Source: Oscillospiraceae bacterium (GTDB taxonomy: Bacteria; Bacillota_A; Clostridia; Oscillospirales; Ruminococcaceae). From it: a DNA stretch of 5,863 nt. The translations under genes and the position numbers were made by a program. The notes beneath the pieces were generated by a model, which had not been told where the DNA came from, did no database searches, and worked only from the letters and a program-made list of their open reading frames with translations. The stretch covers positions 1 through 5,863 of the forward strand of contig CAAFWX010000263.1 of the NCBI GenBank assembly GCA_900766795.1, given 5' to 3'. Of the stretch, positions 3 to 4,661 are shown piece by piece. Numbering within the stretch: position 1 is the stretch's first letter; each line of letters begins with the position of its first letter.

Positions 3-461
3 GAGGTGTTCCCTGAAGCCAAATACCAGCGCTGCACAGTACATTTTTACCGCAACGTTTTCTCGGCAACTCCCCGAAACAGAATGCGTGAAGTGACCCG
101 AATGCTGAAAGCAATACACGCTCAGGAAAGCAAGGAAGCTGCACGCAAAAAGGCAAAGGACGTTGTGGAGCAGCTTCGCGCAATGAAACTAAAAGAAGCC
201 GCCAAAAAGGTTGAGGACGGCATTGAAGAAATGCTGACATATATGGATTTCCCGTCGCAGCACTGGATTAAGATACGCACCAATAATGTCATTGAGCGAA
301 TGAATAGGGAGATACGGCGCCGAACAAGAGTAGTCGGAGCCTTTCCTGATGGCAATTCCGCCTTAATGCTCGTATGCGCAAGGCTGCGTTATGTCGCGGG
401 AAAAGACTGGGGTTCTAAGCGTTACCTGTGCATGAAATGTATGGATTACGCTTCTGAATAA
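3..461 (+). CDS. IS256-family transposase, C-terminal fragment (5' end outside window)
   Basis: This is the C-terminal 152 residues of a DDE transposase of the IS256 (mutator) family, which excises and inserts the element that encodes it. The reading frame is open from the first complete codon at position 3, so the true start and the two catalytic aspartates lie upstream; full-length members have about 400 residues. Visible family hallmarks are the motif RCTVHFYRN near residues 10-18, a Lys/Glu/Ala-rich helical stretch, and the block RTNNVIERMNREIRRRT near residues 92-106. The Glu encoded at 294-296 is in the position expected for the third catalytic acidic residue. The conserved segment VVGAFPDGNSALMLV follows. 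The end, after WGSKRY, seems slightly shorter than in some relatives. No frameshift or internal stop is visible, so the enzyme may be intact. Family assignment is very secure; activity is unknown. Confidence 0.93.
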   Translation, partial: EVFPEAKYQRCTVHFYRNVFSATPRNRMREVTRMLKAIHAQESKEAARKKAKDVVEQLRAMKLKEAAKKVEDGIEEMLTYMDFPSQHWIKIRTNNVIERMNREIRRRTRVVGAFPDGNSALMLVCARLRYVAGKDWGSKRYLCMKCMDYASE

Positions 462-2809: not shown

Positions 2810-2838
2810 TTGACAGAAGAAAGGGTTTGTGCTATATT
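2810..2838 (+). promoter_or_regulatory. Sigma-A promoter of the ABC-F gene
   Basis: A perfect TTGACA (2810-2815) and TATATT (2833-2838) are separated by 17 bp, with a TGC directly before the -10 (extended -10). The start site should be near 2845, only about 65 bp after the permease stop, which leaves a long leader of about 285 nt before the ABC-F start codon. Confidence 0.88.
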
Positions 2839-2843
2839 ATTCG

Positions 2844-2896
2844 CAGAACTTTTGTTCTGACTTTTCCGCAAAAAGCGTAACGGCTTTCTTCGCGGA
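2844..2896 (+). other. Two hairpins at the 5' end of the ABC-F leader RNA
   Basis: CAGAAC (2844-2849) pairs perfectly with GTTCTG (2854-2859) around a TTTT loop, right at the predicted transcript start. A second, interrupted stem pairs 2865-2869 with 2892-2896 and 2872-2876 with 2883-2887. A hairpin at the extreme 5' end may stabilise the transcript; that role is inferred. Confidence 0.55.
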
Positions 2897-2924
2897 GATT
2901 AACAATAAGATTTGAGGTGAAAAG

Positions 2925-2945
2925 ATGCGTAAGATTTCCTGCTAA
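2925..2945 (+). CDS. Six-codon leader peptide (MRKISC) of the ABC-F attenuator
   Basis: A very short upstream ORF encodes Met-Arg-Lys-Ile-Ser-Cys followed by TAA. It is preceded by GAGGTGA (2914-2920), a seven-base match to the 16S rRNA 3' end, with GAGG ending 7 nt before the ATG, so it should be translated efficiently. Its last three sense codons (2934-2942) also form the 5' strand of a 9-bp stem with 2998-3006. A ribosome held anywhere on this ORF by a drug would therefore cover that strand and change how the leader folds. Tiny leader peptides upstream of a conditional terminator are a known arrangement for antibiotic-resistance ABC-F genes such as Bacillus vmlR and Listeria lmo0919. Its role is inferred from position; the peptide itself has no recognised family. 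Confidence 0.72.
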   Translation: MRKISC

Positions 2946-3006
2946 GTTTTTTGGGGCATACAAAAGGGCGGTGATACCGTCTGTTTTGTCGTGCCATGCA
3001 GGAAAT
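2934..3006 (+). promoter_or_regulatory. Anti-antiterminator-type hairpin of the ABC-F leader
   Basis: ATTTCCTGC (2934-2942, inside the leader peptide) pairs perfectly with GCAGGAAAT (2998-3006). Nested inside are GGCA/TGCC (2955-2958 with 2992-2995), ACAAAA/TTTTGT (2960-2965 with 2984-2989) and CGGT/ACCG (2969-2972 with 2976-2979). The result is one long hairpin expected when the leader peptide is not occupied by a stalled ribosome. Competing pairings exist, so it is plausibly one arm of a switch. Confidence 0.65.
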
Positions 3007-3033
3007 ATTACGGTCTTTTCGCTTTTGTATTAA

Positions 3034-3070
3034 GCTTAGGGGACGGGTGTAATTTGCCCTGCCTCAAAGC
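3034..3070 (+). other. Imperfect hairpin between leader switch and leader terminator
   Basis: GCTT (3034-3037) pairs with AAGC (3067-3070), and G-rich 3039-3048 pairs imperfectly with 3056-3065, around a loop near 3049-3055. It carries another CCTGC (3058-3062), so it could compete for the GCAGG at 2998-3002. Its role is unknown. Confidence 0.4.
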
Positions 3071-3083
3071 CTTCCGAATCGTG

Positions 3084-3111
3084 AGCCGCAGTATATCCTG
3101 CGGCTATTTTT
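3084..3111 (+). terminator. Leader (attenuator) terminator upstream of the ABC-F gene
   Basis: AGCCGCAG (3084-3091) pairs perfectly with CTGCGGCT (3098-3105) around a 6-nt loop. An A follows, then five T (3107-3111). It lies between the promoter and the ABC-F ribosome binding site, only 20 bp before the start codon, so it must be bypassed for expression. This is the expected design of a transcription attenuator. It may also stop read-through from the purine operon. Confidence 0.85.
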
Positions 3112-3130
3112 ATTTTCGGGAGGTAAATTT

Positions 3131-4618
3131 ATGTCTGTAATTAATATTGAAAATCTGACTTTTGCATACGACGGCAGTGCCGATAATATCTTTGAAAACG
3201 TGAGCTTTCGTATCGACACCGACTGGAAGCTGGGCTTCACCGGAAGAAACGGCAGGGGGAAAACCACGTTTATGAAGCTGCTGATGGGGGAGTATGAATA
3301 CCGCGGCAGAATCACCTCAAGCGTGGAGTTTGAGTATTTCCCGTTTGCCGTGCCGGGCGAGGGAATACTTGTGGCGCAGCTTGCCGAGGAGATTTGCCCA
3401 AACGCCGAAAGCTGGGAGCTTGTGCGGGAGCTGTCGCTTTTGCAGGTGGAGGACGGCGTGCTGTACCGCCCGTTTTCGGAGCTTTCGGGCGGCGAGAAAA
3501 CCAAGGTCATGCTTGCGATGATGTTCCTGCGGGACAATTGCTTTATGCTGATTGACGAGCCGACAAATCACCTTGACAGCACGGGCAGGGAAATCGTCAG
3601 CCGCTATCTGAAAAGCAAAAAGGGCTTTATCCTGATTTCCCACGACCGCGCCGTGCTGGACGAATGCACCGACCACACTCTCTCAATCAACAGAACGAAC
3701 ATCGAGATTGAGCACGGGAACTACTCGTCGTGGGAGAAAAACAAGGCGGCAAGGGATAATTTCGAGGCAGTGCAGAACGAGCGGCTGAAAAGGGAGATAA
3801 AACAGCTCGAAACCGCCGCGCGGCTTGCTGCGGAGCATTCCGACAGGATTGAGCGCACCAAAATCGGATTTGACCCGACAAAGACAGAAAAGTCCATTTC
3901 AAGACGCGCTTCGGTCGCGAGAAAATCCAAAAAGCTGATGAACCGCTCTAAAGCCATGGAAACCAGAATTGAAGCGGACATCGAAAAGAAAACGGGACTG
4001 CTGAAAAACATCGAAAGCGCCGCCTCACTGAAGCTTCCTGTTCTGAAATTCCACAGTGCAAAGCTGCTGAGCTTTAGAAATCTTTCTGTTTTCTACGATG
4101 ACAGGACTGTTTGCAGCGGTGTTACGTTTGACATAAGCGAGGGGGATATTCTGGCGCTTTCGGGGAAAAACGGCTGCGGCAAAACCAGTATCATAAGGCT
4201 CATTTGCGGCGAGGATATTCCCCACACGGGCGAAATAATCATGAACAGGCAGCTTATCATATCCCGCATTTCGCAGGATTTCACAGGGCTTTCGGGGAAC
4301 CTTTCGGACTTTGCGGCACAGCGCGGCTTTGACGAAAGTCTTTTCAAGGCGATACTGCGCAAGCTGGATTTCTCGCGGGAGCAGTTTGAAAAGCCTATCT
4401 CGGATTTCAGCGATGGTCAGAAAAAGAAGGTGATGATTGCCGCAAGCCTTTGCACGCCCGCGCACCTGTACATCTGGGACGAGCCGCTGAATTATCTCGA
4501 CGTCTATTCCCGCAGACAGCTTGAGGAGCTGATTTTAAGCTGCAAGCCGTCAATGCTGATTGTTGAGCATGACAGAGCTTTTTTAGAAGCAGTGAACGCG
4601 CAGCGATTTGTTTTCTAA
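3131..4618 (+). CDS. Antibiotic-resistance-type ABC-F protein (Lsa/Vga/VmlR-like ribosomal protection factor)
   Basis: A soluble cytoplasmic protein with two ABC ATPase domains and no membrane segments. ABC-F factors of this type bind the ribosomal E site and reach towards the peptidyl transferase centre to dislodge bound drugs. The 495 residues match Lsa-type proteins (about 490-500). NBD1 has Walker A GRNGRGKTT (38-46), signature LSGGEKTKV (118-126), Walker B FMLIDEPTNHLD (138-149) and the switch His in LISHDR (H171). A charged helical linker, the tRNA-contacting region, spans about 200-300. NBD2 has Walker A GKNGCGKTS (345-353), a degenerate signature FSDGQ (426-430), Walker B with WDEPLNYLD (449-457), and VEHD (478-481). 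The EPLNYLD variant is characteristic of the Lsa/Vga branch. GGGAGG (3118-3123) supports the ATG. Likely spectrum, by family only, is lincosamides, pleuromutilins and streptogramin A. Expression appears controlled by the leader attenuator. The family is secure; the resistance phenotype is inferred, and housekeeping ABC-F function is less likely. Confidence 0.9.
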   Translation: MSVINIENLTFAYDGSADNIFENVSFRIDTDWKLGFTGRNGRGKTTFMKLLMGEYEYRGRITSSVEFEYFPFAVPGEGILVAQLAEEICPNAESWELVRELSLLQVEDGVLYRPFSELSGGEKTKVMLAMMFLRDNCFMLIDEPTNHLDSTGREIVSRYLKSKKGFILISHDRAVLDECTDHTLSINRTNIEIEHGNYSSWEKNKAARDNFEAVQNERLKREIKQLETAARLAAEHSDRIERTKIGFDPTKTEKSISRRASVARKSKKLMNRSKAMETRIEADIEKKTGLLKNIESAASLKLPVLKFHSAKLLSFRNLSVFYDDRTVCSGVTFDISEGDILALSGKNGCGKTSIIRLICGEDIPHTGEIIMNRQLIISRISQDFTGLSGNLSDFAAQRGFDESLFKAILRKLDFSREQFEKPISDFSDGQKKKVMIAASLCTPAHLYIWDEPLNYLDVYSRRQLEELILSCKPSMLIVEHDRAFLEAVNAQRFVF

Positions 4619-4629
4619 TAAGTTATCCA

Positions 4630-4661
4630 ACGCTCCCGCCGGTTAATGCGGGGGCGTTTTT
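4630..4661 (+). terminator. Rho-independent terminator of the ABC-F gene
   Basis: Positions 4630-4639 pair with 4648-4657 over 10 bp (one G-U at 4634:4653), with an 8-nt loop (4640-4647) and a run of five T (4657-4661). It begins 12 bp after the ABC-F stop codon and separates this unit from the following operon. Confidence 0.9.

What the first reader, a model, noticed from the sequence alone, without database searches (positions are those of the whole stretch)
2844..3130. Drug-sensing transcription attenuator with a six-codon uORF controls an ABC-F gene
Seen: promoter, strong Shine-Dalgarno, uORF MRKISC-stop, a 9-bp perfect stem using the uORF's last three codons (2934-2942) with 2998-3006, and a textbook terminator (3084-3111) 20 bp before the ABC-F ATG. 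The released strand GCAGGA (2998-3003) can instead pair with TCCTGC (3096-3101), the 3' half of the terminator. CCTGC occurs three times (2938, 3058, 3097) against one GCAGG, which is the signature of competing pairings. Inference: a ribosome stalled on the uORF by a peptidyl-transferase drug frees 2998-3006 and lets transcription continue. The exact uORF and fold may be undescribed.
Basis: partly seen in the sequence, partly recalled or inferred. Interest (0 to 1): 0.75.

Follow-up and report, generated by a model that had tools for sequence, protein, structure and literature searches.

The report
Ribosome-sensing RNA switch before ABC-F gene
The stretch before a probable antibiotic-resistance gene looks like an RNA switch that keeps the gene from being copied unless a ribosome jams at the start of a tiny upstream reading frame; the same switch recurs in many other bacteria, in some groups with that frame shrunk to a bare start and stop.

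Summary
Observation confirmed: 2844-3130 holds promoter, SD, uORF MRKISC, terminator and three competing strands.

The leader is conserved and the strands covary. Searched RNA-first, it lay before an ABC-F gene in 82 of 90 loci, 74 of 74 at E<=1e-3. Start codon and RNA strands are kept; the peptide is not: uORFs run from six or more codons down to three, two or a bare start-stop (74 of 89 Paenibacillales leaders, by a model biased to them; 6 of 14 Bacilli leaders by an unbiased one). In 14 of 90 Paenibacillales loci it precedes cfr.

The mechanism class (vmlR, cplR) is known; the sequence family has no Rfam match. Most likely it reports ribosomes held at initiation by peptidyl-transferase drugs. 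Drug response, termination and uORF translation are untested.

The parts
2810..2838 (+). promoter, TTGACA-17-TATATT with TG before the -10
   Evidence: 11 of 12 consensus matches; promoter-like sequences stand before the uORF in relatives (by eye)
2845..2898 (+). two extra 5' hairpins (2845-2858 and 2863-2898) between promoter and uORF SD
   Evidence: folds; not seen by eye in the close relatives printed, whose -10 lies nearer to the SD
2914..2919 (+). Shine-Dalgarno GAGGTG of the uORF
   Evidence: sequence; SD-like sequence at the same place in relatives
2925..2945 (+). uORF MRKISC-stop
   Evidence: start codon kept, peptide and length not
2934..2942 (+). U strand: anti-antiterminator 5' arm inside the uORF (extended arm 2915-2942)
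   Evidence: 9-bp perfect helix with 2998-3006; 4 of 9 pairs with changes on both sides in 22 cores
2955..2995 (+). inner hairpin between U and A strands
   Evidence: MFE structure
2998..3014 (+). A strand: pairs either with SD and uORF (anti-antiterminator, to 3024) or with the terminator (antiterminator)
   Evidence: duplex energies and pair probabilities; three-strand covariation
3069..3078 (+). anti-SD strand that pairs with 3115-3124 and hides the ABC-F SD
   Evidence: MFE; SD closed in the free fold of the window and 12 close relatives (P unpaired 0.25 or less)
3084..3112 (+). intrinsic terminator: stem 3084-3105, tail ATTTTTA 3106-3112
   Evidence: terminator-like hairpins in relatives
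3085..3101 (+). T strand: antiterminator partner of 2998-3014 (15 of 17 paired)
3117..3123 (+). ABC-F SD CGGGAGG
   Evidence: sequence
3131..4618 (+). ABC-F ATPase, 495 aa, Lsa-like
   Evidence: NCBIfam ribo_prot_ABC_F 454.6 bits (cutoff 380); ABCF_Lsa_all 672.3 bits, under its cutoff of 750

Best explanation
2844-3112 is a ribosome-sensing transcription attenuator of the Lsa-like ABC-F gene. Without stress, ribosomes start at the uORF AUG, finish and leave; 2915-2942 then pairs with 2998-3024, and the terminator 3084-3112 forms and stops RNA polymerase. When a peptidyl-transferase inhibitor such as a lincosamide, pleuromutilin or streptogramin A holds a ribosome at or just after the AUG, its footprint covers both the SD strand and the U strand, frees 2998-3014, and that strand captures 3085-3101 before the terminator hairpin can close, so the ABC-F gene is transcribed. 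The signal is ribosome position at initiation; the peptide matters little or not at all. Shown by comparison and computation: the elements, their conservation, covariation, gene linkage and the in-silico switch. Inferred: drug identity, arrest, termination, induction.
For:: free leader P(anti-antiterminator) 0.97, P(terminator) 0.99; ribosome on AUG P(terminator) 0.23, P(antiterminator) 0.76; codons 2-3 about 0.5 each; codons 5-6 terminator 0.85 and 0.97; of 209 distinct leader cores, 207 form the terminator when free; a ribosome on the AUG drops it below 0.5 in 130 of 207 (69 of 81 start-stop, 13 of 26 two- or three-codon, 48 of 100 longer uORFs), against 51 of 207 for a footprint at +3 to +33, 1 of 207 when the inner hairpin is masked, 2 of 207 when the A strand is masked as well and 2 of 207 when it is shuffled., 41 leaders: 28 against 0 in each of four controls. 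RNA-first loci before an ABC-F gene: 82 of 90, 14 of 15, 74 of 90. Covariation. uORF length changed repeatedly while the strands persist: at least 20 long/not-long changes on a 190-protein FastTree, 11 forced by well-supported branches. Experimental precedents: PMC9226507 (abstract and two sections), PMC10201436 and PMC12421871 (passages): drug arrest at the start codon or on a three-codon uORF goes with induction of ABC-F genes.
Against: No experiment. The equilibrium switch fails in 77 of 207 distinct leaders, 52 of 100 with longer uORFs, and is weaker with a narrower footprint (mean P(terminator) 0.51 against 0.32 in 41 leaders; window 0.57 against 0.06). In the full-length window transcript the terminator stem plus the anti-SD helix wins even with a ribosome on the AUG, so the ABC-F SD stays closed in the model; the switch must act co-transcriptionally and translation may need a further step. 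The host genome is not held. Many leaders are close relatives, and the strands were chosen as best complements, which favours pairing.
Confidence: 0.8

Rival explanations
1. Arrest depends on the nascent peptide: MRKISC is a drug-dependent stalling peptide, as in macrolide leaders such as ermCL or the msrD leader (recalled).
For: Arg at position 2 is the commonest (44 of 102 uORFs of five or more codons). In vmlR the uORF sequence affects induction: MRK is less efficient than MIN (PMC9226507, section read).
Against: Residues 2 and 3 vary widely (R, I, Y, K, F, D, L ...; N, K, I, T, S, F ...); the FSC/ISC end is the pairing strand, and leaders that stop before it keep the strand; a six-codon peptide hardly enters the exit tunnel (general knowledge).
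Confidence: 0.08
2. Mainly a translational attenuator: the anti-SD helix 3069-3078 with 3115-3124 controls the ABC-F start, and the terminator is secondary.
For: The SD is closed in the free fold of all 13 close leaders folded; cplR and vmlR use both layers (PMC10201436, PMC9226507).
Against: A T-run follows the stem and three strands covary around it; a stalled ribosome does not open the SD in the window's model (0.06 to 0.00; among the 12 relatives the largest opening is 0.06 to 0.41, L006).
Confidence: 0.12
3. A riboswitch, or a sensor of another translation stress (starvation, initiation defects), rather than of peptidyl-transferase drugs.
For: Drug response is untested; vmlR is also induced by ribosome assembly defects (PMC9226507 abstract).
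Against: No Rfam family matches; the best conserved parts are a ribosome binding site, a start codon and pairing strands, with a variable inner loop; the genes behind it are ABC-F ribosomal-protection-like or cfr.
Confidence: 0.1
4. Ordinary terminator of the upstream hpt-permease operon with chance pairings.
For: A terminator lies between two genes; the upstream permease ends at 2778.
Against: A good promoter lies between permease and terminator; the leader recurs before ABC-F genes in genomes of other families and classes; chance pairings in 3 of 2000 shuffles.
Confidence: 0.02

Closest known systems
Bacillus subtilis vmlR leader (PMC9226507; abstract and two sections read)
   Same: Short uORF inside an anti-antiterminator stem, antiterminator against terminator, partly hidden SD of the ABC-F gene; VmlR protects from pleuromutilins, lincosamides and streptogramin A
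   Different: vmlR uORF is MIN, its SD lies in a single-stranded region before the first stem, and RNA polymerase pausing is shown; here the SD is buried in the stem, the uORF is MRKISC, and pausing was not tested
Clostridioides difficile cplR leader (PMC10201436, passages)
   Same: Transcription plus translation attenuation with a tiny uORF MR[I/M] before an ABC-F gene
   Different: CplR is another ABC-F subfamily (NCBIfam CplR scores 196.6 bits here against a cutoff of 780); the gene's SD is in the terminator stem there, in a helix flanking the terminator here
lsa(A) leader of Enterococcus (uORF consensus MAGN, PMC10201436 passages) and plasmid lsa(B), lsa(E)
   Same: Lsa-type protein downstream (lsa(B), lsa(E) proteins 52-54% identical to the window's)
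   Different: Published uORF differs; the one lsa(B) and one lsa(E) plasmid copy examined have no match to either model of this leader at E<=0.1
Streptomyces are5sc and tiaA leaders (PMC12421871, passages)
   Same: Toeprints show lincosamide, pleuromutilin and streptogramin A arrest at the uORF start codon, the step proposed here
   Different: Actinobacterial ARE5 genes with uORFs MLV and MVGDDDISG; sequence relation not tested

Membership tests
Ribosome-mediated transcription attenuators of ARE-ABCF genes | Short uORF with SD upstream of an ABC-F ribosomal-protection gene | tested here: met
   resistance activity of the protein itself not tested
Ribosome-mediated transcription attenuators of ARE-ABCF genes | Anti-antiterminator that overlaps the uORF, conserved by covariation | tested here: met
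   93.4% of cells paired, 4 of 9 pairs changed on both sides, covariation score above all 500 shuffles
Ribosome-mediated transcription attenuators of ARE-ABCF genes | Antiterminator and intrinsic terminator mutually exclusive, switched by a ribosome on the uORF | tested here: met
   in silico only: window yes (footprint -15 to +15); 130 of 207 distinct leaders
Ribosome-mediated transcription attenuators of ARE-ABCF genes | Antibiotic-dependent arrest on the uORF and induction | not testable with these tools
   needs toeprint and reporter
Lsa family ABC-F proteins (ARE3) | Score above NCBIfam curated cutoff for ABCF_Lsa_all | tested here: not met
   672.3 bits against 750; its best family, and above the cutoff of the general ribo_prot_ABC_F model; so Lsa-like, not filed as Lsa
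Any Rfam RNA family | Covariance-model match to the leader | tested here: not met
   window up to E 1: four matches under their gathering scores, none in the leader; nine relatives up to E 0.1: none
vmlR, cplR or lsa(A) leader by descent | Sequence homology of the leaders | not tested
   the published leaders were not fetched; only one plasmid lsa(B) and one lsa(E) copy were compared

The most novel reading that the evidence does not exclude
The window belongs to a widespread leader RNA family of Clostridia and Bacilli that reads ribosome occupancy at a start codon and little else. In Paenibacillales its uORF is usually only a start codon followed at once by a stop (ATG-TAA, ATG-TAG, ATG-TGA, even GTG-TAG), so the sensor never makes a peptide bond and would detect drug block of the initiating (or fMet-releasing) ribosome. 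The same module has been taken over by cfr, the 23S rRNA A2503 methyltransferase gene, after loss of the ABC-F gene.
Probability: 0.5. Interest if true: 0.72.

Novelty: new variant of a known kind. Interest (0 to 1): 0.52.

Why it matters
It gives a concrete, testable sequence rule for how ABC-F (and some cfr) genes may be switched on in many Firmicutes, and it separates two ideas that are easily mixed: drug-specific peptide arrest and simple occupancy of the start codon. Natural start-stop uORFs would be the minimal form of a ribosome sensor; at six bases they are below the default 9-nt minimum of uORF4u, the uORF finder used for cplR, vmlR, vmlR2 and lsa(A) (PMC10219788 and PMC10201436, passages), so they may have been overlooked.

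Tried and rejected
RNAalifold on 22 cores recovered only the 9-bp U:A helix, so R1 is mostly a sequence model; it also scores the reverse strand of some true sites (E up to about 6e-4 to 1; L168). Of the 52 protein-first relatives 12 were left out of the fold sets: no upstream DNA, no leader, or not recognised (L020, L022, L026, L028, L029, L039-L042, L045, L050, L052); L026 was later found by R1. Of 90 RNA-first loci, eight (L131, L136, L138, L139, L141, L143, L144, L145; E 0.0012 to 0.0091) have no ABC-F gene and are taken as false. In the Bacilli class 15 of 17 listed rows were examined (the others: L059, already known, and the reverse strand of L155); L167 (E 4.2e-4) is taken as false. L247 and L248 have neither ABC-F nor cfr. 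Of 227 loci taken as leaders 13 were not parsed for a uORF: six not located by my script, five without an accepted ATG/GTG plus SD (L068 and L113 mislocated by the script; L106 looks like a TTG start; L090 has an SD that the pattern missed; L247), two with only long frames (L127, L132).

A conserved stop after the start codon is weaker evidence than it looks: of the four triplets that keep the pairing with UUAC there, three (TAA, TAG, TGA) are stops and one (TGG) is not, so pairing alone could keep it. The start codon is better evidence: 89 of 90 Paenibacillales leaders have ATG or GTG with an SD-like 4-mer near the expected place. The spacing from that 4-mer to the start is mostly 11-14 nt in start-stop leaders against mostly 7-9 in longer uORFs, so initiation there could be weak. 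In L222, L223, L224, L231, L234 and L235 an upstream ATG gives MRIM-stop (MGIM-stop in L232), and in some others (L019, L021, L023, L025, L038) an in-frame codon at the SD itself would give MKRIM-stop. L164 can also be read as an eight-codon uORF. R2 was built from 16 leaders, 11 or 12 of them start-stop, so the share 74 of 89 is biased; with R1, built without them, six of 14 Bacilli leaders are start-stop.

Literature: (open PMC library only; for only the listed part of the matching papers was seen) listed no paper that by title or abstract start describes this leader, start-stop uORFs before ABC-F genes, or cfr behind such a leader. Subscription papers, such as the 2016 Term-seq paper (recalled, not seen), could not be searched, so 'not in print' is not claimed.

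Full report
What is there. The window looks Ruminococcus-like: in genome contigs the ABC-F protein is nearest to Ruminococcus and Oscillospiraceae metagenome genomes (81-84% identity in L001-L009); an unnamed protein is 90% identical (P0002); no own genome is held. Order: IS256-type transposase 3' part, hpt, a permease, the leader, the ABC-F gene, a GntR-type regulator, an ABC ATPase ('permease' is my reading, NCBIfam gave no match for it). The ABC-F protein is closest to the Lsa model (672.3 bits, cutoff 750) and passes the general ribosomal-protection model (454.6, cutoff 380).

The fold. Free, the leader forms a long stem in which SD and uORF (2915-2942) pair with 2998-3024, and the terminator 3084-3105. 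The strand 2998-3014 can instead pair with 3085-3101: six pairs, a mismatch, five pairs, a mismatch, four pairs, -18.2 kcal/mol against -13.9 for the terminator hairpin. So the antiterminator takes up both arms and the loop of the terminator. With a ribosome footprint on the AUG (-15 to +15), P(terminator) falls from 0.99 to 0.23 and P(antiterminator) rises to 0.76; with codons 2 or 3 in the P site the two are about even; with codons 5 or 6 the terminator returns (0.85, 0.97). My reading of the cause: once a ribosome has moved on, the SD strand GAGGUGAAAAG is free to hold CUUUUC of the A strand. With a shorter 5' end the same calculation gives 0.06 for the AUG, and 0.57 with a narrower footprint of -12 to +12, so the result depends on footprint size.

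Conservation. Fifty-two relatives were fetched by protein. Forty of them and the window, 41 leaders, had a recognisable uORF and a terminator-like hairpin. In 38 of the 41 the strand that pairs best with the uORF is also the one that pairs best with the terminator's 3' part (not L012, L030, L049; read). In the 41, a footprint on the AUG takes P(terminator) below 0.5 in 28; masking the inner hairpin, masking the spacer, masking the A strand together with the AUG, or shuffling the A strand does so in 0 of 41 each. A covariance model R1 from 22 leaders was then used without any protein information. Matches: 57 of 247 genomes of the family of G001 at E<=0.01, 36 of 391 of its class at E<=1e-3, 16 of 299 of the class of G005 at E<=1e-3. 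G001 and G005 are the genomes of L001 (Ruminococcus) and L015 (Paenibacillus); group names are inferred from that. All 90 new loci were examined: 82 have an ABC-F homologue behind the match, including all 74 with E<=1e-3 and 8 of the 16 weaker ones. In the class of G005, 14 of 15 examined. Three of these ABC-F genes are only 24-27% identical to the window's (L125, L146, L147) and are not Lsa-like, so the leader is not confined to one ABC-F subfamily.

Covariation. In A3 (22 leaders) the U:A helix is paired in 93.4% of cells, with double-sided changes in 4 of 9 pairs and a covariation score (0.234) above all 500 shuffles and all slid versions. In A4 (16 Bacilli-type leaders) 4 of 27 pairs have double-sided changes, and the score is reached by 4 of 500 shuffles. 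Of 214 parsed leaders 207 could be anchored and 203 have both helices scored as good; in these the bases at U, A position 4 and T are T-A-T in 145, C-G-C in 34, with T-G-C in 14 and T-G-T in 6; among 89 distinct triads cognate strands pair better on average than in any of 500 swaps, for both helices. Caveat: A and T positions were picked as best complements, and relatives are not independent.

The uORF. Of 227 loci taken as leaders 214 were parsed, 209 of them distinct. In Clostridia and kin 85 of 104 uORFs have 4-8 codons and 19 have 2-3. Where the uORF is long its end mostly reads SC because it is the pairing strand; residues 2 and 3 vary widely. Where it is short (such as MK, MR, MRN, MRK, ME, MDN) the strand lies behind the stop codon and is in most cases kept. 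In Bacilli the extreme is a start codon followed directly by a stop. With R1, which held no such sequence, six of 14 Bacilli leaders are of this kind. With R2, built from 16 Bacilli-type leaders, 138 of 246 genomes of the order of G007 (the genome of L019, Paenibacillus planticolens) match at E<=1e-3, with up to five matches in a genome, some of which may be reverse-strand scores. I fetched 90 of the matches listed there, from strong to weak (the list is itself cut): 89 were parsed, 74 start-stop (52 ATG-TAA, 14 ATG-TAG, 3 ATG-TGA, 5 GTG-TAG), 3 with two or three codons, 12 longer. On a FastTree of 190 ABC-F proteins the long/not-long state changes at least 20 times, 11 of them forced by well-supported branches, and start-stop at least 17 times, 6 forced. 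So the peptide looks dispensable and the start codon does not. Across 209 distinct leaders the AUG footprint takes the terminator below 0.5 in 130 of the 207 that form it (69 of 81 start-stop, 13 of 26 short, 48 of 100 long), a footprint at +3 to +33 in 51, the inner mask in 1, A-strand masking in 2, A-strand shuffling in 2. That 77 of 207 do not switch in this simple equilibrium model is a real weakness.

Other genes behind the leader. Of the 90 Paenibacillales loci, 74 have an ABC-F gene, 14 precede cfr, 2 neither. Cfr identity: the full-length L186 protein scores 638.6 bits on TIGR04432 (cutoff 550); three others, cut by the locus end, score 510-513 on it and above the cutoff on PRK14453; the remaining ten were identified by 73-96% identity to the L186 protein. 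Scraps of an ABC-F gene lie between leader and cfr at E<1e-3 in L186, L203 and L235, and weakly in L219 and L228; in the other nine none was clear. The simplest history is a leader that first served an ABC-F gene which was then lost, leaving cfr behind it; whether transcription really runs on into cfr, roughly 450-600 bases after the leader match begins, was not tested.

Against a simple story. In the complete window transcript, the terminator stem is flanked by an outer helix (3069-3078 with 3115-3124) that hides the ABC-F SD; with a ribosome on the AUG this state still wins at equilibrium and the SD stays closed (P unpaired 0.00). The SD is closed in the free fold of the window and 12 close relatives (P unpaired 0.25 or less), mostly with partner strands that match its changes (by eye), and in none of the 13 does the stalled ribosome open it beyond 0.41. 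Hence the switch must work while RNA polymerase is at the terminator, and a second, translational layer is likely, as published for vmlR and cplR.

Comparison with known systems. Works like: vmlR (PMC9226507; abstract and the sections on the leader and on the uORF read), cplR and the lsa(A) uORF (PMC10201436; passages), are5sc/tiaA (PMC12421871; passages), where toeprints place lincosamide and pleuromutilin arrest at the uORF start codon; hflXr of Listeria is a further attenuator of this kind with a 14-aa frame (PMC6310831; passages). The window meets the architectural features of that kind. It has no Rfam match. One plasmid-borne copy each of lsa(B) and lsa(E), and the copies in L262-L264, lack it by R1 and R2, while a Paenibacillus urinalis plasmid copy (L259) has it with ATG-TGA. 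Descent from the vmlR or cplR leaders was not tested. The window copy itself is a new member of a known kind; the family that it opens contains a variant, the start-stop uORF, that my searches of the open literature did not bring up. That a stop codon in the A site of an initiating ribosome would still allow peptidyl-transferase drugs to hold it is plausible from classical fMet-release assays (recalled, no call).

Noticed in passing
L186, L196, L203, L204, L219, L224, L225, L228, L231, L232, L234, L235, L241, L242: The same leader stands before cfr (23S rRNA A2503 methyltransferase), with clear ABC-F remnants between them in three and weak ones in two.
   Followed up: partly
window 2845-2898: Two extra hairpins between promoter and uORF SD that the close relatives printed seem to lack.
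   Followed up: no
window 3069-3124: Anti-SD helix around the terminator that hides the ABC-F SD; the SD is closed in the free fold of 12 close relatives too.
   Followed up: partly
L125, L146: Remote ABC-F proteins (24-25% identity; 260 and 242 bits on ribo_prot_ABC_F, cutoff 380, both cut by the locus end) behind leaders with uORF MRK; possibly another ABC-F group.
   Followed up: partly
window 3-461: 3' part of an IS256-family transposase gene (135.6 bits, cutoff 150).
   Followed up: no
window 4631-4661: GC-rich inverted repeat with T-run just after the ABC-F gene, probably its terminator (read by eye).
   Followed up: no
L225, L232, L234 and other cfr loci, between leader and cfr: A second short frame beginning MFEVV(N/D) or similar lies between leader and cfr, perhaps another leader peptide; a similar stretch precedes the ABC-F gene of L022, where the main leader was not found.
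   Followed up: no
L260 (lsa(B)) and L262, upstream of the ABC-F gene: A different leader-like stretch, with its own short frame, precedes lsa(B) and the Priestia megaterium homologue, and the two resemble each other (by eye).
   Followed up: no
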